A stretch of 64,000 bases of DNA from Segetibacter aerophilus. Lineage in GTDB: Bacteria > Bacteroidota > Bacteroidia > Chitinophagales > Chitinophagaceae. Positions 40,791 to 57,622 of this stretch are shown here, in pieces. Below the pieces are notes generated by a model. That model was given only the letters and a program-made list of their open reading frames with translations, was not told the origin of the DNA and ran no database searches. The stretch is taken from the NCBI RefSeq assembly GCF_007991655.1, contig NZ_BJYT01000013.1:1-64000 (forward strand). The letters run 5' to 3'. Position numbers and translations under genes: made by a program. Positions within the stretch are counted from its first letter, which is position 1. Each line of letters begins with the position of its first letter.

Positions 40791-41744
40791 ATGCAACGCT
40801 TAATTCTAAAATCTTTATACGCCTTTGTGCTCATAAAATATCCCCGAATCCGTAACGATCTAAGGTATTTTATAAGAGATAATTATTTCTGCCGACTTAA
40901 CCAGGCTCGCTTTCTGGTGAAAGATTATTTGGTAAAAGAGCAGTACAAAGAGGTTGAATATTATGGAGAATTCGACCAGGAGCTGCGGTATGTTTTGCCT
41001 TTTGCTTACTGGCACCATTTGAATGGGACACTTAAGAAAACAATATCGTGTAAGAATACAAAGGAGTTTTATTTCTTCAGCAAGAACCATGAAGAAAAAT
41101 ATAGCGAACGCGTTTGGAAGGCGGGTTACGACTACTACGACGTTCCCAACATGACCCATAGCAATTCTTTTAGTTATAGAAAGTGGGCACGAGTTCCTCT
41201 AAAGAAATTTTATAAAAACGATGAGTTTGTTTTTGAGAAACCCATTTTAATCATTGCCAATAAATACAATATCGAGTGGGACAACCCGCCATTGAATTAC
41301 CTTGACATAGCCTCGCTTGATAAAATCATTTCAACCTATAAACACAAGTACCAGGTCATTTACAACCGTCCTTTATCTACCCAGATTATTTCTGATAACA
41401 GCGAGGTGCTTGACCTAAACGAACACTCGTGGCTTCGGGAAAAGCATCCTGAAGTTTTACTTATGAATGACTTGTATACTAGCTACAGATCAAAGGTTGC
41501 GAGCTTCAATCACCTGCAGTTAATGGTCTATGCTAATTGCGACCGGTTTATTTCGATGCATGGAGGCACCGCAGCTTTAGCTAGCTATTTTGGTGGAAAA
41601 AATATAATTCTATCAAATCCCTCACATGGTATGGAGCACCATTTTGATGAATACAAAACAATATTTCCTGCTTTATCAGGAGCTACAATTCTTCACGCTA
41701 AAAGTCGGGATGAAGTATTCAGGTATTTAGAAGAATTATATTAA
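40791..41744 (+). CDS. Putative GT-B-like glycosyltransferase of the EPS operon
   Basis: The 317-residue protein has no close family I can name. The C-terminal half carries features of GT-B or GT61/fucosyltransferase-like enzymes: FNHLQLMVYANCDRFISMHG, then GGTAALASYFGGKNIIL. The N-terminal 120 residues are basic and aromatic without a nucleotide-sugar motif. The position between Wzx and a GT11 fucosyltransferase supports a sugar-transfer role, but this is inference. Confidence 0.55.
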   Translation: MQRLILKSLYAFVLIKYPRIRNDLRYFIRDNYFCRLNQARFLVKDYLVKEQYKEVEYYGEFDQELRYVLPFAYWHHLNGTLKKTISCKNTKEFYFFSKNHEEKYSERVWKAGYDYYDVPNMTHSNSFSYRKWARVPLKKFYKNDEFVFEKPILIIANKYNIEWDNPPLNYLDIASLDKIISTYKHKYQVIYNRPLSTQIISDNSEVLDLNEHSWLREKHPEVLLMNDLYTSYRSKVASFNHLQLMVYANCDRFISMHGGTAALASYFGGKNIILSNPSHGMEHHFDEYKTIFPALSGATILHAKSRDEVFRYLEELY

Positions 41745-41785
41745 AAAGAGTGCAAGTAAGCGATCGCTTGCAACATGAAGACAGT

Positions 41786-42658
41786 ATGATCATTTCAAAA
41801 ATTACAAGTGGATTAGGAAACCAACTCTTTCAATATGCAGTTGCGAAGAGTCTCTCTTTAAAACATAAAACTTCTTTGTTTTTCGACCTAAGCTATTATA
41901 AATCGACTTATGAAACAGACACAGCACGGAGCTTTAAACTTCATCATTTTGATATTGATTACAAAACACTAAACACCTCTCCGCTTGTCTACCTTTCTAA
42001 AGCCACTAAACTTTTTCCCAATAGAAGTTGTCAGCCTTTTTTCTTACTTCTGAAAGAAAAGCATTTTCATTATGATGAACAAGTAGTGAAGGCTAAATCC
42101 ACTTGCATTACACTTGACGGATTTTGGCAATCAGAGAAATACTTTGCAGACGCTACCGAAGCAATAAGAAGAGAGCTAATCTTCAAAGACGCTGCAACTT
42201 CAAGTTTAAATGATTATAAGGGACAAATTGAAAAAGCCGTAAACCCCGTTTCAATTCATATCAGACGAGGTGACTACGTTAGTCACCCTGAGTTCAGCAA
42301 AAGCTTTGGCTTTATTGGTCTCGAATATTATGAACAGGCTGTGAGCTATATAAAGACTAAGGTTGAAAATCCTACCTTTTTTGTTTTTAGTGATGATAAA
42401 GAATGGGTTAAGAAAAGCTTTAAACTACCGGGTTCAAATGTATTTGTCGAAACCGCGGGAGAAGACAGTGATGTAATAGAATTGCAACTAATGAGCTTGT
42501 GTACGCATCATATTATTGCTAACAGTTCTTTTAGCTGGTGGGGTGCATGGTTAAATAACAATAAGAACAAAATCGTTATTTCTCCGGCAAGCTGGTATAA
42601 GAACAAGCCTGATTGGAACACTAAAGATTTACTCCCGGCTTCGTGGGTAACATTTTAA
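41786..42658 (+). CDS. GT11 alpha-1,2-fucosyltransferase
   Basis: I start at ATG 41786 (290 residues). The N-terminus has ITSGLGNQLFQYAVAKSL, and HIRRGDYV is the family's donor-binding motif; NSSFSWWGAWLN is the conserved C-terminal motif. GT11 enzymes transfer L-fucose from GDP-fucose in an alpha-1,2 linkage, so fucose is a probable component of this polysaccharide. GDP-fucose biosynthesis genes are not in the window. Confidence 0.93.
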   Translation: MIISKITSGLGNQLFQYAVAKSLSLKHKTSLFFDLSYYKSTYETDTARSFKLHHFDIDYKTLNTSPLVYLSKATKLFPNRSCQPFFLLLKEKHFHYDEQVVKAKSTCITLDGFWQSEKYFADATEAIRRELIFKDAATSSLNDYKGQIEKAVNPVSIHIRRGDYVSHPEFSKSFGFIGLEYYEQAVSYIKTKVENPTFFVFSDDKEWVKKSFKLPGSNVFVETAGEDSDVIELQLMSLCTHHIIANSSFSWWGAWLNNNKNKIVISPASWYKNKPDWNTKDLLPASWVTF

Positions 42659-42663
42659 ATAAT

Positions 42664-43920
42664 ATGAAATTCCGCAATCACGATATTGTAATGCTTACCT
42701 CATCCCGCTGGGATGATGAACTCTCGTCCTCAGCATTGAGTCTTGCAAAGGAATTCTCAAAATCAAACAGGGTTTTTTATATAGATCATCCTTTTTCGAT
42801 CAAAGATTTTTTTTCTGGCAAGAACAAAACCAGGATTAGGTCACGGATGTCATCTCTACTATTAGGTAAAGGTATCTGCAGGAGGGTTGAGGGATTTCCT
42901 CCTGGTTTCACAGCCGTTACGCCGAAGCTTACTATTCCTATAAATTGGCTGAAAGATGGAAAGATGTATAATTTTCTTTCAGGTAAAAATGATCAAATAT
43001 TATACAAAACGCTGAGGGAGGTAATCAAGAAGAACAGCATCAAGCAATACATCTTCATAAACATCTTTGATCCGTTTTTTTTCAAAAGCTTTCCGTCCGA
43101 CCTAAAGCCTAGCCGGCTCATCTATCAAACAGTGGACGACATCAGTCAGGAAGAATACATTGCAAAGCATGGAATACGCCTGGAAAAGGAAGCAATTAGT
43201 AAGGCTGACTTCACCTTTGCTACTTCCAGGGAATTGGTACGACGTGTTACCCCATTTTCTAGTCGCGTTTTCTATCTGCCTAATGCCGCTGATATATCAA
43301 TTTTTAAAAGGGCTTCGAACACCATCTTACCTCGCCCGGAAGAATTAAAAAATATAATAGGAAAAATAATTTGCTACACAGGCGTTATCGGTACAAGAAT
43401 CAATTATGATCTCTTAAAGAAAATTGCCATTCATCATCCTGATAAAACACTTGTATTAGTAGGGCCTGCGTTGACCTCAGAATATATTGATGCAGGCCTC
43501 AGCGACTGCCCTAATATTATTTTTACAGGTGCAAAGGATATTAATGAGTTGCCCGCCTACTTGCAGTATTCCGATGTTGCAATCATTCCCTTTGAGTACA
43601 ACCAGTTAACCAAAAGCATTTATCCCCTCAAAATAAATGAGTACCTCGCTGCAGGAAAGCCTGTCGTCTCAACAGCATTTTCGGAGGACATAAAGGAGTT
43701 CGATAAGGTGGCATATATAGCCAAAACCAATGAGGAATTCTTGCAGTTGATCGACTTCGCCATCAAGGAAAATTCATTGCAGAAAAAGACTGAAAGAATG
43801 AACGAGGCAGCAAAAAACACATGGCAAAATAGGGTAGAAACTTTTTGGAATATTGTCGAAGAACAAAGTGAAGCTAGTACCGGGCGGCCCGGAGCGGTTT
43901 CAATTAATAAGACTTTCTAA
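42664..43920 (+). CDS. GT-B glycosyltransferase (group 1 type)
   Basis: The frame begins upstream at 42643 with a GTG that overlaps the preceding gene; ATG 42664 (418 residues) is preferred. The N-terminal domain has IVMLTSSRWDDELSSSA and the C-terminal domain has an E-x7-E-like motif (SIYPLKINEYLAAGKPVVST) plus VLVGPALTS. It resembles the TuaH/WcaI group that adds sugars to carrier-linked intermediates. It is eight bases before the NRPS/PKS gene, so the latter is clearly in the same transcript. Confidence 0.87.
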   Translation: MKFRNHDIVMLTSSRWDDELSSSALSLAKEFSKSNRVFYIDHPFSIKDFFSGKNKTRIRSRMSSLLLGKGICRRVEGFPPGFTAVTPKLTIPINWLKDGKMYNFLSGKNDQILYKTLREVIKKNSIKQYIFINIFDPFFFKSFPSDLKPSRLIYQTVDDISQEEYIAKHGIRLEKEAISKADFTFATSRELVRRVTPFSSRVFYLPNAADISIFKRASNTILPRPEELKNIIGKIICYTGVIGTRINYDLLKKIAIHHPDKTLVLVGPALTSEYIDAGLSDCPNIIFTGAKDINELPAYLQYSDVAIIPFEYNQLTKSIYPLKINEYLAAGKPVVSTAFSEDIKEFDKVAYIAKTNEEFLQLIDFAIKENSLQKKTERMNEAAKNTWQNRVETFWNIVEEQSEASTGRPGAVSINKTF

Positions 43921-43928
43921 TAAATTCA

Positions 43929-46900
43929 ATGTCAATCTTAAATACAGGCAATATCGATACAGCTTTAGTTCACACACTTTTCGAGTCTGCAGCTGAAATG
44001 CACGCGGACAAAGTTGCTATAGTTTTCAGCGATGAGACAATCACATATAAGCAATTGAATGAACAGGCACAGAACTTAGCCTTTACAATAGTAGGGAAGG
44101 CAGACACATGTGACTTAATTGGTGTTAGTGCCTCGCGCGGTATACAAACTATCATTGCCGTGCTTGCTATACTGAAAGCAGGCAAAGCTTATTTGCCACT
44201 TGATATTGACTATCCACGCGAAAGGCTTTTACACGTTATAGAAGATGCAAGGTTAAAATTTTGCATCGCTCCGCCAGCCGAGACAAAGCTGTTTGAATCT
44301 TTAGGCGTTTACGTTATCGAAACTGATAGCGATTCCAAGAAAGCTATTTTAGAACAAAAGGCTGTGCCTGGTTCTGTAGCCTATGTCTTATATACATCAG
44401 GATCGACGGGTAAGCCGAAGGGTGTTTGCATGGGACATAAGGCGCTCGTAAATCTTTTAAAGTGGCAGGGCGAAAGTTCAAGTTCTGGTGTCAACACAAG
44501 AACGCTTCAATTTGCGCCTCTAAGTTTTGATGTTTCTTTCCAGGAAATATTTGCAACGCTCACAACGGGCGGCACACTTGTGTTGATCGAGAATGAGCTA
44601 CGTATTGAGCCGGAAGCCTTACTGCAGTTCATTGAAAAAGAAAAAATAAACCGCATCTTTCTGCCGTTTGTCGCATTGCAATATTTAACAGAGGCAGCAA
44701 ATGCAAGTAACCTTTTTCCTGTTTGCTTAGAGGAAGTAATCACCGCAGGGGAACAACTTAAAATTACGCCGGCAATTGAACGCTTTTTTAGTCAACTTCC
44801 TATATGTCGTTTAATTAATCAATATGGGCCTACCGAATGTCATGTGGTGACCGAATGCAAGCTCACAGGCATACCAACTGCATGGCCAAAACTTCCATCA
44901 ATAGGCAAGGCAATCGCTAACACAGAAATATTAATTCTTGATGCAAATCATAATGAATTGCCGCACGATGAGACAGGCGAACTCGCTATTAGCGGAGCCA
45001 GTCTTGCAAATGGTTATTTAAATAACCCTGAATTAACAGCTTCTAAGTTCGTAGAAGTTGAAAGGGCTAATGGAGAATTTAAAAGAGTTTATCTGACCGG
45101 CGATTTAGCTCGCAAGTTGGAAGACGGAAATATTGAGTATCTCGGACGAAAAGACGACCAGGTTAAAATACGTGGGGTAAGAATAGAATTAGGCGAGATC
45201 GAAGTTGTGCTGAATCAAATCAGCAATGTTAAACAAGCGGTAGTCATCGCTGACGAAGGCGAAGATGATCAAAAGCGCCTCGTTGCTTACCTCGTGTCTG
45301 GTGATGGTAAACGTGACACCGCTAACGTAAAACAGTACCTCAGCGATCAGTTACCGGATTATATGATACCGTCTGCATTTGTGTGGGTACAAGAACTTCC
45401 TAAAACTACCAGCGGTAAAATTGACAAGAAGGCGCTACCACGCCCCACTATTACTCGTCCCGATCTGGCTGTTTTGTATAAAGCTCCTAAAACCATTATT
45501 GAAAAAAGGATTGTTGAAGTATGGACAAAAGTGCTTGGTATAGATCAACCGGGCGTTGATGATAACTTTTTTGAGCTTGGCGGAAATTCTTTACTCGCCC
45601 TTAAATCAGTAACTATTCTTTGTGAAAAGTTTGGTTACACACTACCGGTTACCAAACTCTACAAGTTTGCTACGGCCGCAGCCATTGCAGATTTTCTCGA
45701 AAATGGAATAGGTTCAAAAAACGTTCAAACCAGCATTAAACTTAAACAAGAAATTGTAGATGATATAGCCATCATTGGAATGGCGGTCCGCTTACCTAGC
45801 ATAAATACGATTTCAGAGTTTTGGGAAATTTTAAAAGAGGGAAGAGAAACCACTACATTTTTTACAAATGAAGAATTGTCCATTCACATTGATCCTTCTA
45901 TAAAGTCTCATAGCAACTACGTAAAGGCAAGAGGCGTAATTGATAAGATAGAAGAATTTGACGCTGCTTTTTTCGGCATTAATCCTAAGGCTGCCGCCCT
46001 AATGGATCCGCAGCAACGGGTATTTTTGGAAATCACCTGGGAAGTGTTGGAACAGACAGGACATCTGCCTGAAAAATATAAGGAGACGATTGGCGTGTAT
46101 GCAGGAGGAGGAAACAATTCTTATTATATCAACAATGTCTTACCTAACCCAGACGTCGTTGATAAAGTAGGCGCCTTTAACGTAATGACGCTTAATGAGA
46201 AAGACTATATAGCATCAAGAACAGCATACGAATTAAATTTAAAGGGTCCTGCCGTTGGTGTTTACTCAGCCTGTTCTACTTCACTGCTTGCTGTAGCGCA
46301 GGCTGTCGACGCTGTTAGAAAAGGATATTGTTCTATCGCCATTGCCGGAGCCGCGTCCATTACTTCGCCTGTAAAAAGTGGACACCTCTACGAAGAAGGT
46401 GGAATATTAAGTAAGGACGGCCATTGCAGACCTTTCGACAAAGACGCTTCAGGAACAGTTTTTAGCGATGGCGCAGGCGTTGTTCTTTTAAAAAGCCTAA
46501 AGGATGCTGTACGTGATGGTGATACTATTTATTCAATCATAAAAGGTGTAGGTGTAAACAACGACGGGTCAGGCAAAGGCAGTTTCACCGCTCCTGCTGC
46601 TGAAGGCCAGGCAGGTGCAATTAGTATGGCGATAAACGATGCACGTTTACAACCTTCAGATATCTCTTTCATTGAAGCACACGGTACCGCCACAGCCATC
46701 GGCGATCCGATAGAAATAGAAGGATTAAATCTTGTTTTTGGGCAGCAACAATCCAAACAATTTTGCGCGGTTGGTTCAGTAAAAAGTAACGTGGGTCACC
46801 TAACAGCCGCTTCCGGCATTGCCGGCCTTATTAAAACAACTCTATCTCTATATCATAAACAGATCACTCCTACCCTATTTTATAAGCAAGCTAACCCTGA

Positions 46901-49900
46901 GATAGATTTTGTAAACAGTCCTTTTTATGTAAGCACTGAACTAAAAGCATGGGCCACAAGTGAGAAAAGAAGAGCCGGAGTAAGTTCATTTGGAGTAGGT
47001 GGCACAAACGTTCATGTGGTTGTGGAGGAATACGAAAACAAAGAGATGGAGTCTGGCGGATCAAGGCAAATGCAGCTTCTTACATGGTCTGCAAAATCTC
47101 CTCTAAGTGGAAAGGGTTACGCAGAAAAGCTGGTGGAATTCTTACAACATAATAAGAACGAAAACCTGGCCGATCTCGCTTATTCGCAGCATTCAACACG
47201 TGCTGAATTCAACCATCGCTATTCAACGGTAGTATCAACAAATGAAAAAGACATAGCCGTTTTACAGCGCGCTATCCAATCTGCAGAAACTAATACAGTG
47301 TTCGAAAAACCTTCAGAGGTTGTATTTATGTTTCCCGGCCAGGGATCGCAGTATTTAAATATGGGACTTGGTTTATACCAAAACGAACCTGTGTACAAGC
47401 AATCAATTGATACTTGTGCTGAGTTACTGCTTCCCTATCTTAAAATTGATATCCGCCATATCATTTTTCCTACTGAAAACAGTAGTGACAATGCATCTGC
47501 ACTCAACAATACGTTTTATACACAGCCAGCAATCTTTATTACAGAATATGCTTTAGCTAAACTTTGGATGAGTTGGGGTATTCATCCAACCATCCTTTGT
47601 GGCCATAGTATTGGTGAAATCGTTGCCGCTCATCTTGCAGGCATTTTTAGTTTAGAAGACGCCATTCAGTTTATTGTGTTAAGGAGTAAAATGGTGAGCG
47701 AATTGCCGAAAGGAAAAATGCTGTCGATCAGAACTGATGTCAAAAGTTTGAAGGATATTCTCCCGCAAAATCTTTCAATAGCAGCAATAAACAGTGACGA
47801 TGTAATTGTGGTTGCGGGTACAGAAAAAGATATCGTGGATTTTTCAGATAGTTTAACCACCAAGGAGATACCTAACAAAGTTCTTACTACCAGTCACGCT
47901 TTTCATTCTTCTATGATGGAGCCCATTATAGACAAGCTGCAAAAAGTGGCTGAAGGCCTTGTTTTACATCGGCCGCTAAAACCAATCATGTCCACGGTCA
48001 CTGGCACTTGGCTTACTGACGCACAAGCCGTTGATCCGAAGTATTGGGCAGAACATGTTAGAAGAACGGTATGTTTTGGAGATGCTTTAAAGAATATACT
48101 ATTAGAAGAGAACCCGATTTTTCTTGAAGTAGGTCCCGGCATTGTCACAACCACTCTTGCCCGCAAGCAGACAGTGGGAAAGAAGATCACTGTAGTTTCA
48201 AGCCTTCAGGATAAAAACAACGAATACGCTTCATTACTGCAGTCTTTAGGAAAGCTGTGGATGTATGGTTTGGAGCCGGATTGGCAATTATTTTATTCAA
48301 ATGAAAAGCGAAAAAGACTAACACTTCCAACTTATGCGTTTGATAAAAAATACTGTTGGATTGACCCTCCTATTAAATCTGGTGTACCTGCAAAAGTCGC
48401 AGTTGAAACTAACTATGATAAAATTCCTACTCCAACTTTATTGCAAGAATTACCAATGAGAAAGGCAACTTTAGTCAAAAAAATAAAACAAATCATCGAA
48501 GATGCCTCGGGTCTTGAAATGGAAGATGATACGACCGGAATCAGTTTCTTAGAAGCTGGTCTTGATTCGTTATTACTTACCCAACTGGCCATAACACTAA
48601 AAAAAGAATTTGCCGTTCCGGTTACTTTCCGCCAATTACAAGAGGAAAGCAACACTATAGATTTGTTAGCTGAATATCTTGAGAAGGCACTTCCACCTGA
48701 TACCTCTGCAGAACATAAAAATCATACTACAGAGCCTGCGTTAAACCATTTTGTTTCGGCTAATGGCAGTCATCATTCAACGCTTGAATTTATTACGCAA
48801 CAGTTGCAGTTGCTAACAAAACAGGTGGAAAATTTACGTGGTACTTCGAACAATTTTCAAGCAAATTTCTCAAAATCAAAAGAAGTGAGTTTGTCCGAAA
48901 TTGGCTCTTCTCACGATACATCAGGATTAAGCGCCGAAGAGTTTTTTGAAATAAAAAAGCCTTTTGGCGCGACGCCAAAAATTGAGCGCAGAAAAACAGA
49001 TTTTACACCCGCGCAGGAAAGATTTCTGCAGCAATTGACCTTAAGGTATAATAAAAAGACTCAAGGCAGTAAAACTTACACGCAAGAAAACCGGGCACAT
49101 ATGGCAGATCCCCGCGTAGTATCGGGGTTCTCTCCATTAACCAAAGAAGTCGTCTACCCTATTATTGTCAATAAGTCAAAAGGCAGCAGGTTGTGGGACG
49201 TTGACGGGAATGAATACGTTGACGCATTGAACGGCTTTGGCTCAAACCTGTTTGGCTACCAACCTGACTTCCTTAAAAAAGCAATTTATGACCAGGTGGA
49301 AAAAGGGTTTGAATTAGGTCCACAACATGAACTTGCGGGCGAAGTAAGTAAAATGATTTGTGCGTTCACAAATTTTGACAGAGCAGCTTTCTGCAACACT
49401 GGCTCGGAAGCAGTATTAGGCGCTTTAAGAATAGCACGTACTGTAACAGGCCGTTCACTTGTCGTTGCCTTTACAGGTTCTTATCATGGAATAAACGATG
49501 AAGTACTTATTAGAGGAACAAAAAAATTAAAGTCGTTTCCGGCAGCGCCAGGAATTATGCCTGAGGCCGTCCAAAACATGCTGATCCTCGACTATGGTAC
49601 GGAAGAAAGTTTACAGATAATCAGGGAGCGGGCACATGAACTCGCAGCGGTTTTAGTTGAACCTGTGCAAAGCAGGAGACCTGAATTCAGACCAGTCGAT
49701 TTTCTGAAACAAGTTAGAGATATAACGCATCAGTCGAACACCGTATTGATTTTTGACGAAGTGATAACAGGTTTCAGAATGCATGCGGGGGGCGCACAAG
49801 CTTTGTTTGATATAAAGGCAGATGTAGGAACTTATGGCAAAGTGATTGGCGGAGGATTACCAATTGGTGTGATCGCCGGCAAAAAGACTTTCATGGATGC

Positions 49901-50507
49901 GCTTGACGGCGGCTACTGGGACTATGAAGATGACTCTATTCCAGAAGTAGGTGTTACATATTTTGCCGGAACCTTTGTTCGGCACCCGCTTGCTTTAGCC
50001 ACTGCTAAAGCCACACTGGAGTATATGATGGCAAAAGGGCCGAAGCTTCAGGAAAGTATAAATTACAAGGCAGAATATCTCGCCAATAAAATAAATGCTC
50101 AATTAGAGCGCAGGAAACTACCAATTTATATTGCTCAATTTGGCTCCTTGTGGAAAACGAAATTCAAAGAAGATGTACTTCACGGAGAGTTATTGTTTAC
50201 GCTAATGCGTGAGAAAGGAGTTCATATTTGGGATGGCTTTCCTTGTTTCATGACCGAGGCACACAGCCCGGCAGACATAGAATTTATCATTGATGCATTT
50301 ATAGAAAGTGTCGATAGTATGATAGCAGCGGGATTCTATAAGGAGGCAAAATCGGTGGATCAAAAAACTTTCCGAAATGGAGATAATTCATTTAATACAA
50401 CACCAGTTCCCGGAGCAAGGCTAGGGCGCGATAAAAGCGGTAATCCTGCCTGGTTCATCGCCGATGCAAAAGACCCTGGAAAGTACCTTCAGATAAAGAC
50501 ACATTAA
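43929..50507 (+). CDS. Hybrid NRPS/PKS: A-PCP-KS-AT-ACP-aminotransferase
   Basis: The 2192-residue protein has an adenylation domain (about 20-510, YTSGSTGKPKG at 155-165), a PCP (Ser554 in LGGNS), a KS (611-1035; Cys782, His918, His957), an AT (about 1130-1420; Ser1227 in GHSIG; HAFH at 1323-1326, the malonyl-type signature), an ACP (Ser1547 in GLDSL) and a class-III PLP aminotransferase (about 1720-2140; Lys1971). There is no KR or DH, so the beta-keto group made by the PKS is the natural target of the aminotransferase, as in iturin/mycosubtilin-type enzymes. The A-domain specificity residues, by alignment with GrsA, are D-V-Q-F-I-A-Q-V-V-K, closest in memory to proline codes. Product: a beta-amino acid extended from one amino acid. 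Confidence 0.92.
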   Translation: MSILNTGNIDTALVHTLFESAAEMHADKVAIVFSDETITYKQLNEQAQNLAFTIVGKADTCDLIGVSASRGIQTIIAVLAILKAGKAYLPLDIDYPRERLLHVIEDARLKFCIAPPAETKLFESLGVYVIETDSDSKKAILEQKAVPGSVAYVLYTSGSTGKPKGVCMGHKALVNLLKWQGESSSSGVNTRTLQFAPLSFDVSFQEIFATLTTGGTLVLIENELRIEPEALLQFIEKEKINRIFLPFVALQYLTEAANASNLFPVCLEEVITAGEQLKITPAIERFFSQLPICRLINQYGPTECHVVTECKLTGIPTAWPKLPSIGKAIANTEILILDANHNELPHDETGELAISGASLANGYLNNPELTASKFVEVERANGEFKRVYLTGDLARKLEDGNIEYLGRKDDQVKIRGVRIELGEIEVVLNQISNVKQAVVIADEGEDDQKRLVAYLVSGDGKRDTANVKQYLSDQLPDYMIPSAFVWVQELPKTTSGKIDKKALPRPTITRPDLAVLYKAPKTIIEKRIVEVWTKVLGIDQPGVDDNFFELGGNSLLALKSVTILCEKFGYTLPVTKLYKFATAAAIADFLENGIGSKNVQTSIKLKQEIVDDIAIIGMAVRLPSINTISEFWEILKEGRETTTFFTNEELSIHIDPSIKSHSNYVKARGVIDKIEEFDAAFFGINPKAAALMDPQQRVFLEITWEVLEQTGHLPEKYKETIGVYAGGGNNSYYINNVLPNPDVVDKVGAFNVMTLNEKDYIASRTAYELNLKGPAVGVYSACSTSLLAVAQAVDAVRKGYCSIAIAGAASITSPVKSGHLYEEGGILSKDGHCRPFDKDASGTVFSDGAGVVLLKSLKDAVRDGDTIYSIIKGVGVNNDGSGKGSFTAPAAEGQAGAISMAINDARLQPSDISFIEAHGTATAIGDPIEIEGLNLVFGQQQSKQFCAVGSVKSNVGHLTAASGIAGLIKTTLSLYHKQITPTLFYKQANPEIDFVNSPFYVSTELKAWATSEKRRAGVSSFGVGGTNVHVVVEEYENKEMESGGSRQMQLLTWSAKSPLSGKGYAEKLVEFLQHNKNENLADLAYSQHSTRAEFNHRYSTVVSTNEKDIAVLQRAIQSAETNTVFEKPSEVVFMFPGQGSQYLNMGLGLYQNEPVYKQSIDTCAELLLPYLKIDIRHIIFPTENSSDNASALNNTFYTQPAIFITEYALAKLWMSWGIHPTILCGHSIGEIVAAHLAGIFSLEDAIQFIVLRSKMVSELPKGKMLSIRTDVKSLKDILPQNLSIAAINSDDVIVVAGTEKDIVDFSDSLTTKEIPNKVLTTSHAFHSSMMEPIIDKLQKVAEGLVLHRPLKPIMSTVTGTWLTDAQAVDPKYWAEHVRRTVCFGDALKNILLEENPIFLEVGPGIVTTTLARKQTVGKKITVVSSLQDKNNEYASLLQSLGKLWMYGLEPDWQLFYSNEKRKRLTLPTYAFDKKYCWIDPPIKSGVPAKVAVETNYDKIPTPTLLQELPMRKATLVKKIKQIIEDASGLEMEDDTTGISFLEAGLDSLLLTQLAITLKKEFAVPVTFRQLQEESNTIDLLAEYLEKALPPDTSAEHKNHTTEPALNHFVSANGSHHSTLEFITQQLQLLTKQVENLRGTSNNFQANFSKSKEVSLSEIGSSHDTSGLSAEEFFEIKKPFGATPKIERRKTDFTPAQERFLQQLTLRYNKKTQGSKTYTQENRAHMADPRVVSGFSPLTKEVVYPIIVNKSKGSRLWDVDGNEYVDALNGFGSNLFGYQPDFLKKAIYDQVEKGFELGPQHELAGEVSKMICAFTNFDRAAFCNTGSEAVLGALRIARTVTGRSLVVAFTGSYHGINDEVLIRGTKKLKSFPAAPGIMPEAVQNMLILDYGTEESLQIIRERAHELAAVLVEPVQSRRPEFRPVDFLKQVRDITHQSNTVLIFDEVITGFRMHAGGAQALFDIKADVGTYGKVIGGGLPIGVIAGKKTFMDALDGGYWDYEDDSIPEVGVTYFAGTFVRHPLALATAKATLEYMMAKGPKLQESINYKAEYLANKINAQLERRKLPIYIAQFGSLWKTKFKEDVLHGELLFTLMREKGVHIWDGFPCFMTEAHSPADIEFIIDAFIESVDSMIAAGFYKEAKSVDQKTFRNGDNSFNTTPVPGARLGRDKSGNPAWFIADAKDPGKYLQIKTH

Positions 50508-50510
50508 ATA

Positions 50511-53500
50511 ATGGTTACACATACAACTTCGCTTAAGTTCACCTCTGTTGATTTTGATCCTTTTTTTGGACCACAAATCGTAGCGGTAGCTCCTGCGACA
50601 GAACCGCAGAAAGAAATCTGGATTTCCTGTGTGCTGGGTGGAGAAAACGCAAGCAGAGCTTTTAACGAGTCAGTTTCATTGATTTTTAAGGGAGAATTAC
50701 AAAAAGAGAAATTAGAAAGTGCATTACACGATTTAAAAGAAAGACACGAACTACTTCGCGCAGCCTTTAGTGCTGACGGCAGTCAAATTTGCATTTTTAA
50801 AAATCAGTATACAGAACTTTCGTACGAAGACTTGTCAGGTGTTGAAGTTGAGGAGCAGGAAAAAATCTTAGCTAACGAAGCGCGACAAGCGGTTCTTCAT
50901 ATTTTCGATTTACTTCAAGGACCTCTGTTTACAACAAAACTATTAAAGCTAGCTGGCGAGAAACATATTCTTATAATAACAGCACACCACATCATTTGTG
51001 ATGGTTGGTCCCTTAGTCTTATGTTGCAGGAACTGGGTAGGTTATACTCTGGCCAAGTGCAAAACGTTCAAGCCAAATTACTACCGCCTGTTTCTTTTAA
51101 GGAATACGCAAATGAGAAGCTGTCATTTTACAAAACAGAAGAGTATAAAACGGTAGAAAAATATTGGATAAATCAATATGAAGAAAACGTTCCTACAATA
51201 GCTCTTACACCGGATTTTCCACGGCCAGAAATTCGTACTTACTCAAGTCAGCGGCTGGATTATAAGATTGACAGTGAATTAACGTTGGCGTTAAAACAAC
51301 TTGCGATTAAGAGCGGCTGCAGCTTTGTAACTACACTAGTTAGCGGCTTTGAAGTATTTCTCCATCTACTGACAGGTCAGGATTCGCTTGTGCTAGGGCT
51401 ACCGTCAGCAGACCAGGCAGCAACAGGACAATACAACCTGGTAGGTCATTGTGTGAACCTTCTGCCCTTACGCAGCCATGTAGACAGGCATAGAAGCTTT
51501 GCGGACTATTTGAAGCTGCGAAAGAAATCTATTCTTGATGCATTCGATCATCAACAGTTTACGTTCGGAAGCCTTCTAAAGAAATTAAATCTCGCACGAG
51601 ATGCATCAAGGGTAGCCTTAGTGCCGGTAGTATTTAATGTAGATATGGGCATGGGCGACGGAGTAAGCTTTTACGGACTACAACATGAACTTGTAAGCAA
51701 CCCAAGAGCATTTGAAACCTTTGAAATCTTCTTAAATATAAGTGGCTCCGAAAAGTCGCTCACCTTTGAATGGTCATTTAATACCTATTTATTTCAAGCA
51801 CAAACGATTAACAATATGATGGAAGGCTTTAAGAATATCCTAAAAACAGTAATTGAAAATCCATCAATTGCCATTGAAGACATTCCGCTTGATAATAAAG
51901 CAGGTGCAAATATCAAACGCAATCAAAGGGATGCTGCAACCATTTACTATCAGCGCGACAAGTCTGTGCACAGTTTAATAAGCGAGACAGCCGAAAAGTT
52001 TCCGATAAAGACTGCGTTGGTTTTTGGAGAAAGAAATATAAGTTATAAGGAGCTGCACAGAAAATCAAATCAATTTGCTCATTATCTTATAAGAAAAGGA
52101 ATAAAGGCTGGAGACATAGTTGGTGTGGCGCTGGAAAGATCTCCGGAAATGGTCATTTCGATACTTGCCGTAATGAAGACCGGTGCTGCCTTCGTCCCTT
52201 TAGATGTACAATACCCTACTGACCGTCTTCAATACATGCTAGATGATACGTCTGCTAAGTGTATCATAATGAACAAAAAGTATAAGGGAGAATATCGTTC
52301 TCCTGAGTTATTTATTGAAGATGTTTTACCTGAATTAGACTCTTACTCTAAAAGTGAGCCGGGTACAAGAGTTGGCGGTGATGCTCTTGCCTATGTTCTT
52401 TATACATCAGGGTCTACCGGAAGACCTAAGGGAGTACTTATCAAACACAGGAACTTAGTAAATATGCTCTCCAGCCTTCTAAAAATGCCAGGCATAGTAC
52501 AAAGGGATGTGTTACTTGCAGTAACTACAATTTCATTTGATATCGCTTATGTCGAACTGTTTTTGCCTTTATTAGTCGGCGCAACCATTGTGCTGGCAGA
52601 TGCAAACGTCGCAAGAAACGGTCGGGAAATTTTACAAGTTGTGAAAGATCAACAAATAACTATCATGCAGGCTACACCTGTTACCTACAGGATGATGCTT
52701 GCAGCCGGGTGGGATCAGATACTGCCAATAAAACTCCTTTGTGGTGGAGAGCCCATGTCTAAAGATTTAGCAGATAAACTATTGGTAAGATGTAGTTCTC
52801 TTTACAACCTATACGGGCCGACCGAAACAACCGTTTATTCCACAGGAAAGCAAATTTTGCCAAATGATGAAATTATTTCTATTGGCACCCCTATTAACAA
52901 TACCGAGGTGTACATATTAGATGAGGACCGTAATCTTGTAACAGAAGGTGGAACGGGAGAAATATACATATCAGGTGATGGAGTTGGGAGCGGGTATCTG
53001 AACCTGCCTGAATTAACAGAAGAAAAATTCATTCGTAATCCCTTTGGTATAGCTAAGGGAAAAATGTATAAAACAGGAGATCTTGGAAAGTTTTTACCTA
53101 ATGGTGAAATACTATGTTTAGGTAGAATAGACAGGCAAATAAAAATACGAGGCTTTCGAATCGAACCTGGAGAAATTGAAAATGTCATTATGAAATGTGG
53201 CCTCTTCAAAGAAGCACTCGTTATCGCGCAGCAGGATGAAAGGTTACATCAAACACTCGTCGGATATTTAGTATTTAAGAACGCTCCCGATAAAGATAAT
53301 TTTTCAAGGATAGTTCCAAAATTAAAACATCAATTAAAAGTAGAATTGCCGGCTCACATGATACCGGATGATTTTATTTGTCTTTCGCAATTGCCGCTCC
53401 TCCCCAATGGTAAAATCGATTATAAGGCAATTCCAAAAATACACCGACAGTCAGCAAGCAAAGACGAGTCAGAATACAGCGATGCTGAAAAACTAGTTAG

Positions 53501-54527
53501 TAAAATTTGGAAACAATACCTGGGCGACAAAAACATCGGCCTCAATGACAACTTTTTCTTGTTGGGAGGTCATTCGATGATAGCAGTAGAAGTAATGGTA
53601 CGGATCGAAAAGGAAACAGGCGTAAAGCTTCCTTTATCAAGTTTGTTTAAATATCCTACTATCAAAACTTTTGCAACACTTTTAACCACTGACAATAAAG
53701 AAACCATCTGGAAATCGCTGGTTCCTATAAAAGCAACGGGAAGCAAAATGCCTATTTATATTATTCATGGCAGTGGATCAAACATCATGAATTTTAGCAG
53801 TTTTGCGCTACACATGCACGATGACCAGCCTGTTTACGGTTTGCAGGCCAAGGGCCTTAACGGGGTAGATAAGCCATTGGATAGTATGGAAGAAATAGCG
53901 AATCATTATATCGGCGAGGTGCTTAAACACAACCCTTCCGGTCCCTATGCTATTGCGGGTTATTCATTTGGTGGTTATGTAGCCATAGAAATGGCGCGGC
54001 AACTTAGATTGATGGGAAAAGAAGTAAAGTTGCTTGCCATGTTTGATACAAATGCCAAAGAACATTTCTCTGAGACAAGTGCTTTTCATAAGGGATTGAA
54101 TAAAATAATAAGACAGTTTAAAAAAGGTGCCTGGATATCATCTTCGCTAATAAAACAACCAAAGACGACTATAGATTATCAAATGTCTTTCCTGTCTAAT
54201 AAAGTTAAAGCGATTTCATTTTCCCTTGGGCTACTAAAAGCAAAAGAACGAAGTGAGTATCTTCCCGAATTGAATCTTATCAGTCGGCAGAATGATATTG
54301 CTTACAACAATTACAGAATAAAACCTTTCGAAGGAAAAATTGATCTGTTTAAGGCAAAAGAGAGAGTTTATTTTGTGGATGATTTCAAGTTTCTAGGATG
54401 GAAAAAGTATGCATTGCAAGGTGTAAATGTTCATGAAGTTCCGGGTGATCATAAAACAATGCTATTCGCTCCTAACGATAAAGTTTTTGCAAGCGTTTTA
54501 CAAAAAGCCCTTGACAATTGTATTTAG
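50511..54527 (+). CDS. NRPS termination module: C-A-PCP-TE
   Basis: The 1338-residue protein follows after three bases. The condensation domain (about 20-460) has HHIICDG at 159-165. The adenylation domain (about 485-1000) has YTSGSTGRPKG near 631-641. The PCP Ser is 1022 (LGGHS), and the thioesterase (about 1075-1338) has Ser1152 (GYSFGG) and His1314 (GDH). The A-domain code reads D-I-V-Q-L-G-L-V-Y-K by alignment; it resembles a glycine-type code (DILQLGLIWK) but is not a confident call. The module would condense the beta-amino acyl chain from the preceding enzyme with a second amino acid and release the product as acid, lactam or ester. Confidence 0.92.
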   Translation: MVTHTTSLKFTSVDFDPFFGPQIVAVAPATEPQKEIWISCVLGGENASRAFNESVSLIFKGELQKEKLESALHDLKERHELLRAAFSADGSQICIFKNQYTELSYEDLSGVEVEEQEKILANEARQAVLHIFDLLQGPLFTTKLLKLAGEKHILIITAHHIICDGWSLSLMLQELGRLYSGQVQNVQAKLLPPVSFKEYANEKLSFYKTEEYKTVEKYWINQYEENVPTIALTPDFPRPEIRTYSSQRLDYKIDSELTLALKQLAIKSGCSFVTTLVSGFEVFLHLLTGQDSLVLGLPSADQAATGQYNLVGHCVNLLPLRSHVDRHRSFADYLKLRKKSILDAFDHQQFTFGSLLKKLNLARDASRVALVPVVFNVDMGMGDGVSFYGLQHELVSNPRAFETFEIFLNISGSEKSLTFEWSFNTYLFQAQTINNMMEGFKNILKTVIENPSIAIEDIPLDNKAGANIKRNQRDAATIYYQRDKSVHSLISETAEKFPIKTALVFGERNISYKELHRKSNQFAHYLIRKGIKAGDIVGVALERSPEMVISILAVMKTGAAFVPLDVQYPTDRLQYMLDDTSAKCIIMNKKYKGEYRSPELFIEDVLPELDSYSKSEPGTRVGGDALAYVLYTSGSTGRPKGVLIKHRNLVNMLSSLLKMPGIVQRDVLLAVTTISFDIAYVELFLPLLVGATIVLADANVARNGREILQVVKDQQITIMQATPVTYRMMLAAGWDQILPIKLLCGGEPMSKDLADKLLVRCSSLYNLYGPTETTVYSTGKQILPNDEIISIGTPINNTEVYILDEDRNLVTEGGTGEIYISGDGVGSGYLNLPELTEEKFIRNPFGIAKGKMYKTGDLGKFLPNGEILCLGRIDRQIKIRGFRIEPGEIENVIMKCGLFKEALVIAQQDERLHQTLVGYLVFKNAPDKDNFSRIVPKLKHQLKVELPAHMIPDDFICLSQLPLLPNGKIDYKAIPKIHRQSASKDESEYSDAEKLVSKIWKQYLGDKNIGLNDNFFLLGGHSMIAVEVMVRIEKETGVKLPLSSLFKYPTIKTFATLLTTDNKETIWKSLVPIKATGSKMPIYIIHGSGSNIMNFSSFALHMHDDQPVYGLQAKGLNGVDKPLDSMEEIANHYIGEVLKHNPSGPYAIAGYSFGGYVAIEMARQLRLMGKEVKLLAMFDTNAKEHFSETSAFHKGLNKIIRQFKKGAWISSSLIKQPKTTIDYQMSFLSNKVKAISFSLGLLKAKERSEYLPELNLISRQNDIAYNNYRIKPFEGKIDLFKAKERVYFVDDFKFLGWKKYALQGVNVHEVPGDHKTMLFAPNDKVFASVLQKALDNCI

Positions 54528-54633: not shown

Positions 54634-55545
54634 ATGCAATTAGTGTCTATAATAACGGTCAACTACAATAATGCCCCGGTTACAGAAGAACTTCTGCAAT
54701 CAATTTTTGATAAAAACAGGTATTCTGATATAGAGATTATTGTTGTAGATAACGGTAGCAAAGTTGATCCTGTTCCTGCCTGGATAATCACTTACCCGAC
54801 AGTGAAGTTTATAAGATCGGAAACAAATATTGGTTTTGCAGGCGGCAATAATCTCGGAATTAAGGCTTCAACGGGCGGGTATTTATTTCTTATTAACAAC
54901 GATACAGAAGTTACTGATGATCTTGTCGGTCTCCTTGCGAATACCCTTGATCAAAACTCAAATGTCGGTGCTATTTCTCCAGCTATTTTATTTTTTGACG
55001 CACCGGAAGTATTTCAATATGCAGGTTTTACAAAAATGAATTACCTCACAGGAAGAAATCAAACTATTGGTATTGACGAAAAAAATATGGGCCAATACAA
55101 TGATGTGGTGGGAGAAACAGCTTATGCACACGGAGCAGCAATGATGATCAGGCGGACGGCCATTGATAAAGCTGGTTTAATGGCAGAAAACTATTTTTTG
55201 TACTACGAAGAGTTAGACTGGAGCGAGAGAATAAAACAGAAAGGCTTCGACATCTGGATTAATACCAATGCCATTATATTTCACAAAGAGTCACGATCTG
55301 TTGGCAAGAATTCTGCTTTGAAAGAATATTACATGAACCGAAACAGAATTCTTTTCATTCGTTCGCATGCACCCGCTTTTACCTATTGTATGTTCATGAT
55401 TTACTTTCTTAGCATTGTATCTACAAGAAACATGATCACTTATTTGAGGAACAAACAATTTAGTTTCATCTCCATCTTGTTTAAAGCCATTTACTGGAAT
55501 TTTACAAATAGCGTAAATAGTAAGCGCTTATATTTCCCCTCTTAA
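54634..55545 (+). CDS. Glycosyltransferase family 2 (rhamnosyltransferase-like)
   Basis: The 303-residue enzyme has the GT-A start VSIITVNYNNAPVTEELL, the NIGFAGGNNLGI segment, a DxD variant (NNDTEV) and a catalytic acid in EELDWSERIK. It resembles rhamnosyl- or hexosyltransferases that extend O-antigen units. A 106-base gap separates it from the NRPS gene, with no terminator in between. Confidence 0.9.
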   Translation: MQLVSIITVNYNNAPVTEELLQSIFDKNRYSDIEIIVVDNGSKVDPVPAWIITYPTVKFIRSETNIGFAGGNNLGIKASTGGYLFLINNDTEVTDDLVGLLANTLDQNSNVGAISPAILFFDAPEVFQYAGFTKMNYLTGRNQTIGIDEKNMGQYNDVVGETAYAHGAAMMIRRTAIDKAGLMAENYFLYYEELDWSERIKQKGFDIWINTNAIIFHKESRSVGKNSALKEYYMNRNRILFIRSHAPAFTYCMFMIYFLSIVSTRNMITYLRNKQFSFISILFKAIYWNFTNSVNSKRLYFPS

Positions 55546-55608: not shown

Positions 55609-56775
55609 ATGATAGTTACTTTTTGGATCAGTGTCTTTATAATTTTCTATACTTATCTCGGTTATGGTTTTGTACTTTTTATACTTGTAAAAATCAGGCA
55701 AGCCATAAAAGGCAAAAGGCCTGTACATAACAATCTCGAGAATCTTCCTTCGGTTACATTAATAGTTGCTGCATACAATGAAGCAAATATTATTGACGAA
55801 AAGATAAGTAATACTCTCGCGTTAACTTATCCTGCAGATAAAATTGAATATATTTTTATAACCGATGGTTCTACCGACAGTACTCCAGATACAGTAGCAA
55901 AATACCCACGTATAAAACTCATGCACTTACCTGGGAGAAGTGGTAAAATAAACGCAGTACATCGGGCGATGAAAGAAGTAACATCGGAGGTTACCATTTT
56001 TACTGATGCAAATACTTTTCTAAATAAGGAGGCTCTTATAAATATCACACGGCATTACGAAGACGAAAGAGTCGGTGCTGTCTCCGGTGAAAAGCGGGTT
56101 GAAATAACAAATGTTTCTGACGCCACTGCAGGAGAAGGATTTTACTGGAAATACGAATCGGCATTAAAAAGGTTGGATTCACAGCTCTATTCAGTGGTAG
56201 GTGCCGCCGGAGAACTTTTTAGCATTCGTACAAGTTTATATGAACCCGTTCCTGCCGACACGATTTTAGATGATTTTATGATCTCACTACAAATTGCAGC
56301 CAGGCATTATCGCATCATTTACGAACCTGATGCTTTTGCGCTTGAGACTTCATCTGAAAACACGTTTGAAGAGCTAAAAAGAAAAGTACGTATTGCAGCT
56401 GGTGGAATACAATCGATACTTCGCTTGCGTGCCTTATTAAATCCCTTTAAATTTCCGGTGCTGTCATTTCAGTACATCAGCCATAGGGTGTTACGATGGA
56501 CCATTACTCCATTCTGTATGATACTTGCCTTCTTACTAAATATTGCTATTCTTTTCTCTTCCCCAGATTACCTGTACAGCTTTCTATTTTTAGGCCAGTT
56601 CTTTATATACACTGCGGCACTAATAGGCTGGTTGTTTGAAAGGAAGGAGATTAAGATAAAGGCTGTTTTTATCCCGTTTTATTTTTGCATGATGAATTAT
56701 GCTGTACTCGCTGGAATGGTCAGATTCGCTTCAAACAAACAAAGTGCAGCATGGGATAAAGCCAGGAGAAAGTAA
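55609..56775 (+). CDS. Membrane glycosyltransferase family 2
   Basis: The 388-residue protein has an N-terminal span (about 4-26), a GT-A domain with IVAAYNEANIID, FTDANT (DxD), LDDFMISL and a HRVLRW motif in the QxxRW position, then three C-terminal spans. This is the layout of PgaC/cellulose synthase-like enzymes. It closes the rightward EPS run and converges on the GT2 gene at 56786. Confidence 0.9.
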   Translation: MIVTFWISVFIIFYTYLGYGFVLFILVKIRQAIKGKRPVHNNLENLPSVTLIVAAYNEANIIDEKISNTLALTYPADKIEYIFITDGSTDSTPDTVAKYPRIKLMHLPGRSGKINAVHRAMKEVTSEVTIFTDANTFLNKEALINITRHYEDERVGAVSGEKRVEITNVSDATAGEGFYWKYESALKRLDSQLYSVVGAAGELFSIRTSLYEPVPADTILDDFMISLQIAARHYRIIYEPDAFALETSSENTFEELKRKVRIAAGGIQSILRLRALLNPFKFPVLSFQYISHRVLRWTITPFCMILAFLLNIAILFSSPDYLYSFLFLGQFFIYTAALIGWLFERKEIKIKAVFIPFYFCMMNYAVLAGMVRFASNKQSAAWDKARRK

Positions 56776-56785
56776 AGTTTAAAGA

Positions 56786-57622
56786 TTACAAGTCCGTTCT
56801 AACTTCAGTAAATCTTTGAGGAAATAGTGTTTTTGCAATTCGCTTATTCAAGCCCTTTAGAAAACCTCCTTCCATTTGTATGCGTCTGTCAGTTGTCCAA
56901 ACAAGAGCGCCAGATGTAGTAACGTTTCGCAATTTCCCAAAGCCTTTGTCTCTTAATTTCAAAGCCAACCAACCGTCTTCGTTGCTACCAACAGGATGAT
57001 TAAATCCTTCTACTGCCAGGCCATGCTCTCTTCTAAAGCAAGAATTAAAACCGTAAACATTTACCGCTTCTTCTTTAAAATGCCGATTGTAACGCCTCAA
57101 CAGGTTTGTCGCAGACTCATAAAGAAAGTAGGTGAAACGTGAAGTGCCTCCCGTAGGTATAAAACAGAAACGCCCATAAGTCAGCGAAATTGCAGTGTCT
57201 TTTTCTAATGGCGCAACCATTGCATCAATCCAGTTATATGGATAAATGGTATCAGCATCAGCGTTTAGAATGTATTTGCCTGCCGCTACTTGTAAGCCGG
57301 CATTTCTTGCAGCCGTTATTCCCTGCTTTTTTTCTAAGATGCATTTTACACTGGTTGGCCGCACCAGTTCTTCTGTGTTATCTGAAGAATTATTGTTGAC
57401 AACGATAATTTCAACCGATTTCGCAGTTGTATTTACAGCTAAAGAATGTAACGTTTTAAGAATGTTTTTTTCCTCGTTAAATGCGGGAATAATAATAGAA
57501 ACATCACAGACGCCACTTTTTTTTAAGCGCTGATTATTTGTTTTTATTATTTCAATTCTGTCTGCTGCGGAAACATTTTTCCAAATGTTTCTTATACCGG
57601 GCGGTATGAATAAAGTGCTCAT
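56786..57622 (-). CDS. Glycosyltransferase family 2 (right flank)
   Basis: The 278-residue soluble enzyme has SIIIPAFNEEKNILKTLHSL, a DxD-type segment (NADADTIYPYNW) and a catalytic acid in NEDGWLALKLRDKG. It lies 45 bases after the sugar-phosphate transferase gene in the same direction and probably adds one of the early sugars of the repeat unit. Confidence 0.88.
   Translation of the reverse strand: MSTLFIPPGIRNIWKNVSAADRIEIIKTNNQRLKKSGVCDVSIIIPAFNEEKNILKTLHSLAVNTTAKSVEIIVVNNNSSDNTEELVRPTSVKCILEKKQGITAARNAGLQVAAGKYILNADADTIYPYNWIDAMVAPLEKDTAISLTYGRFCFIPTGGTSRFTYFLYESATNLLRRYNRHFKEEAVNVYGFNSCFRREHGLAVEGFNHPVGSNEDGWLALKLRDKGFGKLRNVTTSGALVWTTDRRIQMEGGFLKGLNKRIAKTLFPQRFTEVRTDL

What the first reader, a model, noticed from the sequence alone, without database searches (positions are those of the whole stretch)
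43929..54527. Complete hybrid NRPS/PKS line with integrated aminotransferase inside an EPS operon
Two genes 3 bases apart encode A-PCP-KS-AT-ACP-aminotransferase and C-A-PCP-TE. All active-site residues are visible, the AT carries the malonyl HAFH motif, and no KR is present, so beta-keto to beta-amino conversion is the natural outcome. They begin 8 bases after a glycosyltransferase gene and are followed by two more, so they belong to the EPS transcript. A secreted polysaccharide that carries a beta-amino-acid substituent, or a small molecule co-produced with it, would be unusual.
Basis: partly seen in the sequence, partly recalled or inferred. Interest (0 to 1): 0.85.

Follow-up and report, generated by a model that had tools for sequence, protein, structure and literature searches.

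The report
Amino-acid assembly line in polysaccharide operon
Two giant enzymes that build a small, unusual beta-amino compound sit inside a bacterium's slime-polysaccharide operon, and relatives of the pair sit beside such operons again and again in the same phylum, which suggests that these bacteria chemically equip their coats with it.

Summary
Observation confirmed. Window 43929-54527 encodes A-PCP-KS-AT-ACP-aminotransferase (2192 aa) and C-A-PCP-TE (1338 aa), with the active-site motifs looked for, a malonyl-type AT and no KR. The aminotransferase is closest to that of mycosubtilin MycA (E 3e-132). Codes point to a proline-like starter and glycine; the predicted product is a beta,gamma-diamino acyl-glycine. 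The pair lies in a Wzx/Wzy polysaccharide locus with gaps of 8 and 3 bases.

New here is the scale. The line is widespread in Bacteroidota. EPS genes lie within about 10 kb in 55 of 119 distinct relatives, against 0 of 40 random 20-kb controls; in a less selected sample, 12 of 46 regions. Arrangements differ (after Wzc in Spirosoma, either end of EPS operons in Mucilaginibacter, facing a polysaccharide locus in Pedobacter). In Pedobacter, lines with different starter codes share one chromosomal site, like serotype cassettes. The EPS link is probably real but not obligatory: 64 of 119 show no such neighbour.

Attachment to the polysaccharide is the favoured reading, unproven: a thioesterase ends the line and no dedicated acyltransferase was identified. 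A free molecule co-produced with the EPS is the main rival.

The parts
43929..50507 (+). Protein 1 (2192 aa): A-PCP-KS-AT-ACP-aminotransferase
43980..45419 (+). A1 adenylation domain; code read as DVQ(I)IAQVVK, proline-like (position 278 uncertain)
   Evidence: Pro codes often share V236/Q239 (PMC12283262, passages)
45507..45698 (+). PCP1
   Evidence: GGNS
45759..47219 (+). Ketosynthase with C-terminal extension
   Evidence: Cys and two His motifs
47322..48248 (+). Acyltransferase, malonyl type (GHSIG, HAFH)
   Evidence: motif meaning recalled
48456..48653 (+). ACP (borders approximate, set by hand around GLDS)
   Evidence: second PP-binding stretch; GLDS
49152..50228 (+). Class III (GSA-type) aminotransferase, closest solved relative MycA (6kfu, 6kfm)
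50511..54527 (+). Protein 2 (1338 aa): C-A-PCP-TE
50586..51884 (+). Condensation domain (HHIICDG)
51984..53414 (+). A2 adenylation domain; code DIVQLGLVYK, glycine-like
53496..53684 (+). PCP2
   Evidence: GGHS
53751..54464 (+). Type I thioesterase (GYSFG, GDH)
33489..34247 (+). EPS locus: outer-membrane efflux-type (OEP) protein
34238..36421 (+). EPS locus: chain-length determinant / tyrosine-kinase type protein
36418..37575 (+). EPS locus: GT2 glycosyltransferase
37746..39293 (+). EPS locus: Wzy_C (O-antigen ligase/polymerase family)
39314..40750 (+). EPS locus: MOP-family flippase (Wzx)
40791..41744 (+). EPS locus: 317-aa protein with no Pfam or NCBIfam match; tentative GT-B-like fold
41750..42658 (+). 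EPS locus: GT11 glycosyltransferase
42643..43920 (+). EPS locus: GT1-type glycosyltransferase, 8 bases before protein 1
54634..55545 (+). EPS locus: GT2 (GT2b), recurrent neighbour of the pair
55609..56775 (+). EPS locus: GT2 (GT2c), recurrent neighbour of the pair
56786..57622 (-). EPS locus: GT2
57668..58795 (-). EPS locus: initiating sugar-phosphate transferase (Bac_transf)
32723..33358 (-). EPS locus: hexapeptide acyltransferase, WbbJ/WcaF-like but below every NCBIfam cut-off shown

Best explanation
The two genes are a complete hybrid NRPS-PKS line that is a true accessory of a Wzx/Wzy exopolysaccharide locus. Predicted chemistry: A1 loads a proline-like amino acid on PCP1; KS and AT extend it with malonate on the ACP; the MycA-type aminotransferase converts the beta-ketone to an amine, giving a beta,gamma-diamino acyl chain (for proline, 3-amino-3-(pyrrolidin-2-yl)propanoyl); C joins it to glycine on PCP2; TE takes it off. 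Most likely fate: it is put on the EPS or its lipid-linked repeat unit as an acyl or aminoacyl substituent, by TE transacylation or an acyltransferase not yet identified, so that swapping the line changes the surface chemistry as serotype cassettes do. Shown: domains, motifs, position in the locus, recurrence at EPS loci. Inferred: substrates, product, attachment.
For: Domains and motifs. MycA match with the YGK motif aligned. Codes: with PMC12283262 (passages). Spacing; same order in G374. EPS markers near 48 of 80 named relatives and in 0 of 40 random regions. 55 of 119 distinct relatives, with at least 16 changes of the label on the tree (9 forced by starred branches). In the whole-genome sample 12 of 46 regions, 11 of 45 without the window. 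Unlike arrangements with tight spacing (Spirosoma lacussanchae L224: Wzc, 13 bases, P1, P2; G505, a Mucilaginibacter MAG by its match to L169: P1-P2-PPTase-small gene-PGT-OEP-Wzc-Wzy-flippase-GT1-GT2-[A-PCP-TE]-GT2b-GT2c, all one strand). One Pedobacter site with different lines and starter codes. A glycine-coded A-PCP-TE without a C domain overlaps GT2b by 4 bases in G505. Precedent in the phylum: F. psychrophilum O-PS R-group, predicted to be made by O-PS-locus acyl-ACP genes and a PglD-like acyltransferase (PMC6519341, abstract and passages). In 9 of 18 genomes that I chose, the C domain beside the aminotransferase is the only one at E<=1e-40.
Against: 64 of 119 relatives have no window-type EPS marker within about 10 kb, among them all 5 Hymenobacter, 6 Larkinella and 2 Flavobacterium rows (Larkinella does have other glycosyltransferases upstream). 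The line ends in a TE, which fits release. No acyltransferase dedicated to transfer was identified; the hexapeptide protein is below every cut-off shown and lies about 10.6 kb away on the other strand. The genes scanned include no amino-sugar enzyme. A PPTase lies near the pair in 71 of 119 loci, as in ordinary metabolite clusters. In the Pedobacter loci shown the pair runs against the neighbouring GT genes, so it is a separate transcript. At one Pedobacter pair (L179, L195) the aminotransferase is 96% identical but GT2c only 74%, so line and GT side can be exchanged apart. GT2c across genomes associates only weakly with the line: 14 of 38 genomes with it, 59 of 357 without, and in G594, G621, G668 and G689 it lies far from the pair.
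Confidence: 0.45

Rival explanations
1. The line makes a free small molecule (beta,gamma-diamino acyl-glycine or its lactam) that is secreted and acts with the EPS, for example as a metal ligand, signal or antibiotic in the biofilm; co-location reflects shared expression.
For: Type I TE at the end. PPTase near the pair in 51 of 80 named loci and 71 of 119. MOP-type flippase next to it in loci without EPS genes: G089, G166, G218, G296, G349 (Pfam checked for G166 only). The same line without EPS markers in 64 of 119. Possible tailoring neighbours: Cupin_8 and FkbM methyltransferase.
Against: Position inside EPS gene runs, not merely near them, in several genera. I recognised no drug-resistance gene among the 33 neighbour families seen in at least 5 loci; most were judged by eye, few were Pfam-scanned, and one family in 6 loci looks like an ABC transporter.
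Confidence: 0.38
2. EPS loci are hot spots for gene gain; the line landed there repeatedly and has no functional tie to the polysaccharide.
For: The label changes at least 16 times on the tree; Pedobacter shows exchange of line and of GT genes at one site; many relatives lie elsewhere.
Against: 8 flanks (8 kb each) of 5 other NRPS clusters in relatives' genomes hold no EPS marker (small sample, 2 of 10 requested stretches did not exist). Tight same-strand spacing in Spirosoma, Mucilaginibacter and the window genus. A flippase 64-69% identical and, in G678, the rare 317-aa protein (74%) accompany the pair in Spirosoma-type genomes.
Confidence: 0.12
3. The line is a remnant or does not run as predicted (e.g. 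inactive KS or skipped amination).
For: None found; expression unknown.
Against: Motifs intact; 78-81% identical in G374; aminotransferase core, YGK included, invariant over 20 aligned sequences, window included.
Confidence: 0.05

Closest known systems
Mycosubtilin/iturin synthase MycA and microcystin McyE (KS-AT-ACP-aminotransferase lines; their domain orders recalled, McyE not compared here)
   Same: KS-AT-ACP followed by an integrated GSA-type aminotransferase that makes a beta-amine on the carrier; the MycA aminotransferase is the best solved match (445 bits).
   Different: Chain starts with an adenylated amino acid instead of a fatty or phenyl-derived acyl; only one further module, then TE; often located at EPS loci.
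Flavobacterium psychrophilum O-polysaccharide R-group genes (wfpC-wfpG)
   Same: Acyl group predicted to be made on a carrier protein encoded inside a Wzx/Wzy polysaccharide locus, same phylum; strains differing in R-group genes differ in antigenicity (PMC6519341, abstract and passages).
   Different: Type II fatty-acid-like enzymes and a PglD-like acyltransferase; acyl is 3,5-dihydroxyhexanoyl; no NRPS or TE named in the passages seen.
Dlt system (D-alanylation of teichoic acids; recalled)
   Same: Adenylation and carrier-protein loading of an amino acid for polymer decoration; DltA models match the A domains.
   Different: No PKS, aminotransferase or TE; dedicated membrane acyltransferase DltB; matches are far below the DltA cut-offs.
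Bacteroidetes hybrid NRPS/PKS clusters surveyed in PMC9248904
   Same: Same phylum and cluster class; few of its gene cluster families match a known product.
   Different: The 12 passages seen name no line of this type and no polysaccharide link; the rest of the paper was not read.

Membership tests
Beta-aminating hybrid PKS-NRPS (MycA type) | KS-AT-ACP followed in the same protein by a class III/GSA-type aminotransferase | tested here: met
Beta-aminating hybrid PKS-NRPS (MycA type) | Catalytic PLP lysine motif kept | tested here: met
   YGK aligned with MycA YGK; invariant in 20 aligned sequences
Beta-aminating hybrid PKS-NRPS (MycA type) | No reductive domain after the KS, so the beta-ketone is kept for amination | tested here: met
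   no KR family in the Pfam scan
Beta-aminating hybrid PKS-NRPS (MycA type) | Acyl-ligase (fatty acid) loading as in MycA (recalled) | tested here: not met
   loading is an amino-acid A-PCP (TIGR01733 over cut-off); hence a variant, not a MycA orthologue
Wzx/Wzy-dependent EPS locus | Initiating sugar-phosphate transferase, flippase, polymerase-type protein, chain-length/export proteins and GTs together | tested here: met
EPS acyl-decoration system | Acyltransferase that moves the carrier-bound acyl to a sugar | tested here: inconclusive
   only a hexapeptide protein below cut-off and the TE itself
EPS acyl-decoration system | Substituent present on the polymer | not testable with these tools
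   needs NMR/MS of EPS
Dlt operon | DltA, DltC, DltB, DltD set | tested here: not met
   DltA models far below cut-off (281-308 bits against 476-560); no MBOAT match among the 20 proteins scanned

The most novel reading that the evidence does not exclude
Bacteroidota own a phylum-wide class of exopolysaccharides whose repeat units are decorated with type I NRPS-PKS products: small beta,gamma-diamino acyl-glycine groups with interchangeable starter amino acids. The NRPS-PKS pair is a swappable serotype-like cassette at the EPS locus, and a stand-alone glycine-coded A-PCP-TE in Mucilaginibacter EPS operons is a simpler member of the same aminoacyl-decoration principle.
Probability: 0.35. Interest if true: 0.88.

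Novelty: new variant of a known kind. Interest (0 to 1): 0.72.

Why it matters
Polysaccharide decorations govern charge, adhesion and recognition of bacterial coats; those known to me are acetyl, pyruvyl, simple amino acids or short fatty acyls. A modular NRPS-PKS line tied to EPS loci would mean cationic, programmable, beta-amino decorations made by megasynthases, and would let surface chemistry be read from A-domain codes. Even in the rival reading, a widespread two-gene line for which I found no product, sometimes the only NRPS in its genome and often beside biofilm genes, is a clean target for product discovery in culturable type strains of Pedobacter, Mucilaginibacter and Spirosoma.

Tried and rejected
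Rejected: chance or annotation artefact (intact motifs, conserved relatives). Rejected: uniqueness to this genome or to Chitinophagaceae. Rejected: GT2c presence in a genome as a marker of the line; it is common in the class sample (73 of 395 genomes). Rejected: the LgrA hit as guide to A1 specificity; its 574 bits are the sum of two domains of 279 and 293 bits.

Led nowhere: Rfam on the window (0 matches). Paper searches for an NRPS or PKS inside an EPS locus (listings only, except passages of PMC9248904) gave no such description; the library is open-access only, so this does not show that nothing is in print. Structure of the 317-aa protein: mean pLDDT 58.7; no fold match at E<=0.001, GT-B or epimerase types among the weaker ones.

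Of 129 aminotransferase proteins, 10 were left out of the tree (identical, or under 48% identity to the window). The extended marker set (72 of 119 with one or more, 61 with two or more, controls 0 of 40) was chosen after seeing the loci and is not used as evidence. My script label 'Wza' means the OEP-type protein, not a Wza match by family. Position 278 of the A1 code is uncertain. Code-to-amino-acid readings other than those in PMC12283262 are recalled.
Full report
WHAT IS THERE. The window holds two same-strand genes, 43929-50507 and 50511-54527. Pfam and motif checks give A-PCP-KS-AT-ACP-aminotransferase and C-A-PCP-TE with each catalytic motif looked for, a malonyl-type AT and no ketoreductase. 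The aminotransferase is closest among solved structures to that of mycosubtilin synthase A (445 bits, E 3e-132), with the YGK lysine motif aligned, and only then to glutamate-1-semialdehyde aminomutases.

SURROUNDINGS. Upstream on the same strand from 33489 are OEP, Wzz/tyrosine-kinase type, GT2, Wzy_C, MOP flippase, an unknown 317-aa protein, GT11 and GT1. Downstream are two GT2 genes, then on the minus strand a GT2 and the initiating sugar-phosphate transferase. Gaps around the pair are 8, 3 and 106 bases; a weak consensus scan shows no terminator-like site in them. G374, same genus, keeps the order. In the genus the flippase was found in 2 of 10 genomes, G000 and G374, and a close relative of the aminotransferase segment in the same two of the 9 genus genomes listed; a third, G352, has only a 43% relative there and a 47% Wzc-type protein. 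The genome carries two PPTases elsewhere.

PREDICTED PRODUCT. A1 reads DVQ(I)IAQVVK. PMC12283262 (passages) reports V236 and Q239 as frequent marks of proline domains, and relatives of this A1 in two unnamed class-level genomes (G613, G459) read DVQLIAHVVK, which I recall as a proline code. The forms DVQ[IL][IM]AQVVK are the commonest among the relatives. Leaving out LgrA, whose score sums two domains, the best solved matches are 8xjz_C (377.6 bits) and tyrocidine synthase 2 (369.5 bits; its first module takes proline, recalled). A2 reads DIVQLGLVYK; at least 73 of 120 aligned rows, window counted twice, read DILQ-type codes; DILQLGMIWK is a glycine code in PMC12283262. For A2, again without LgrA, 8xjz_C (425.7 bits) and 5u89_A (402.2 bits, recalled as the glycine domain of DhbF) lead. 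Hence a proline-derived beta,gamma-diamino acyl-glycine is predicted. Substrates are inferred.

HOW WIDESPREAD. The ACP-aminotransferase segment matches at E<=1e-60 in 32 of 394 genomes of the family sample, 28 of them at 58% identity or more, own genome included, and at E<=1e-100 in 38 of 395 of the class sample. In 9 of 18 genomes that I chose, the C domain beside the aminotransferase is the only condensation domain at E<=1e-40; in a tenth, G738, the only one lies about 25 kb away. In those genomes it is not one accessory NRPS cluster among many.

EPS LINK TESTED. I used the window's own EPS proteins as markers (blastp E<1e-15). In the 80 named loci (most about 21 kb, some cut by contig ends) 48 of 80 had at least one and 42 of 80 at least two; 40 random 20-kb regions from 20 contigs of relatives' genomes had 0 of 40. 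On 119 distinct aminotransferase sequences, 49 had two or more, 6 one, 64 none; the label needs at least 16 changes on the tree, 9 forced by well-supported branches. In the 46 regions drawn by whole-genome sampling, 12 of 46 had markers, each two or more; without the window 11 of 45 against 0 of 40, p=0.0006, though these regions are longer than the controls and not all independent. Eight flanks of five other NRPS clusters held no EPS marker.

ARRANGEMENTS. One search lists orders and gaps. Spirosoma and Rudanella (L175, L217, L224): GT2-OEP-Wzc, then 13 to 178 bases, then the pair, with a flippase 64-65% identical to the window's nearby (69% in L215). Mucilaginibacter type B and one unnamed Bacteroidetes MAG (L162, L164, L169, L171, L173): pair-PPTase-small regulator-like gene-PGT-(OEP)-Wzc. 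Mucilaginibacter type A: GT2b-GT2c-pair-PPTase; in 5 of 5 such genomes searched a PGT match lies 10-13 kb upstream of the fetched stretch on the same strand. Pedobacter: the pair faces GT2c-GT2b; in G472 a branching GT, a DegT sugar aminotransferase and an ABC transporter follow. Over the 15 named genomes, 14 have a PGT match whose coordinates lie about 9-35 kb beyond the fetched stretch; L176 has none. In one search contigs were equated by coordinates only, so these distances are inferred. G309 and G335, one other genus: pair at the 5' end of PGT-OEP-Wzc-Wzy. Larkinella (L177, L187), counted as 'none', has GT1-GT2-GT1 genes upstream on the same strand.

CASSETTE EXCHANGE. Some Pedobacter loci share an upstream gene (S46 peptidase-like by eye; 84-90% identical between types) and the downstream GT2c (74-84%) and GT2b (69-79%), yet carry aminotransferase types only 69-70% identical (93-96% within type in the pairs measured), with starter codes such as DLT.IGHIGK (Asp/Asn-like, recalled) and DAQATGIVVK. 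Thr-like DFW.IGMVHK (recalled) and Pro-like codes occur beside GT2c/GT2b in other Pedobacter. This resembles exchange of serotype cassettes. Two cautions: A-domain exchange is also usual in free metabolites, and in the pair L179/L195 the aminotransferase is 96% and the upstream gene 97% identical while GT2c is 74% and GT2b 70%, so the GT side is exchanged independently of the line.

A SIMPLER COMPANION. In the G505 EPS operon an A-PCP-TE protein without a C domain, glycine code DILQLGMIWK, overlaps GT2b by 4 bases. In six other Mucilaginibacter loci (L192, L197, L203, L209, L211, L214) the C-terminal part of a similar protein, cut by the edge of the fetched stretch, stands upstream of an OafA-like gene and GT2b. 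A line that loads one amino acid and has only a TE makes most sense if the TE transfers to an outside acceptor; this is inference.

MECHANISM AND RIVALS. F. psychrophilum is the nearest precedent: its O-polysaccharide R-group is predicted to be built on a carrier protein encoded in the O-PS locus and moved to an amino sugar by a PglD-like enzyme; strains with other R-group genes differ in antigenicity (PMC6519341, abstract and passages). I favour decoration of the EPS (0.45) over a free metabolite tied to the EPS (0.38) and chance lodging in a hot spot (0.12). Against decoration: the TE, the missing acyltransferase, the relatives without EPS neighbours, the opposite strand in Pedobacter, the independent exchange in L179/L195, and the weak genome-level co-occurrence with GT2c (14 of 38 against 59 of 357).

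VERDICT. Observation confirmed. Interpretation partly supported and widened: the EPS link recurs across the phylum, while attachment to the polysaccharide is open. The line is a new variant of beta-aminating PKS-NRPS; its recurrent link to polysaccharide loci is the surprising part.

Noticed in passing
L116:13901-16582 (G505, matches Mucilaginibacter MAG record of L169): Stand-alone A-PCP-TE protein without a C domain, glycine code, inside an EPS operon and overlapping a glycosyltransferase gene by 4 bases.
   Followed up: partly
window 40791-41744: 317-aa protein with no Pfam or NCBIfam match; found in only 2 of 295 class genomes (the window's and G678, where one of two copies, 74% identical, is also near the NRPS-PKS pair), and in G374; weak GT-B-like fold.
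   Followed up: partly
window 59669-60736 and 60754-63444, minus strand: TIR-domain protein next to a TPR-repeat protein; weak PADLOC matches to TIR proteins (ThsB, PDC-S66) for the first, none for the second; possible defence pair.
   Followed up: partly
window 58833-59243, minus strand: 136-aa protein with a faint response-regulator match, before the sugar-phosphate transferase; similar 126-136-aa genes precede that transferase in several related EPS loci.
   Followed up: no
genome contigs C42, C55, C6 (G000): Twelve further condensation domains in other NRPS genes of the window's genome.
   Followed up: no
G119, region L082/L081: A second NRPS-PKS pair in tandem behind the first, upstream of EPS genes; starter code differs (Pro-like; Thr-like in the first), and its 1758-aa first protein is not among the aminotransferase hits, so it may lack that domain.
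   Followed up: no
L187:17209-18078 and L174:4375-5163: Recurrent neighbours of the pair: a Cupin_8 hydroxylase-like gene (family in 13 loci) and an FkbM methyltransferase (family in 7 loci), possible tailoring enzymes.
   Followed up: partly
G354:C12, G330:C1, G382:C1: A distinct, 39-43% identical aminotransferase sits among other NRPS genes; no EPS marker in the 20 kb fetched around each.
   Followed up: no
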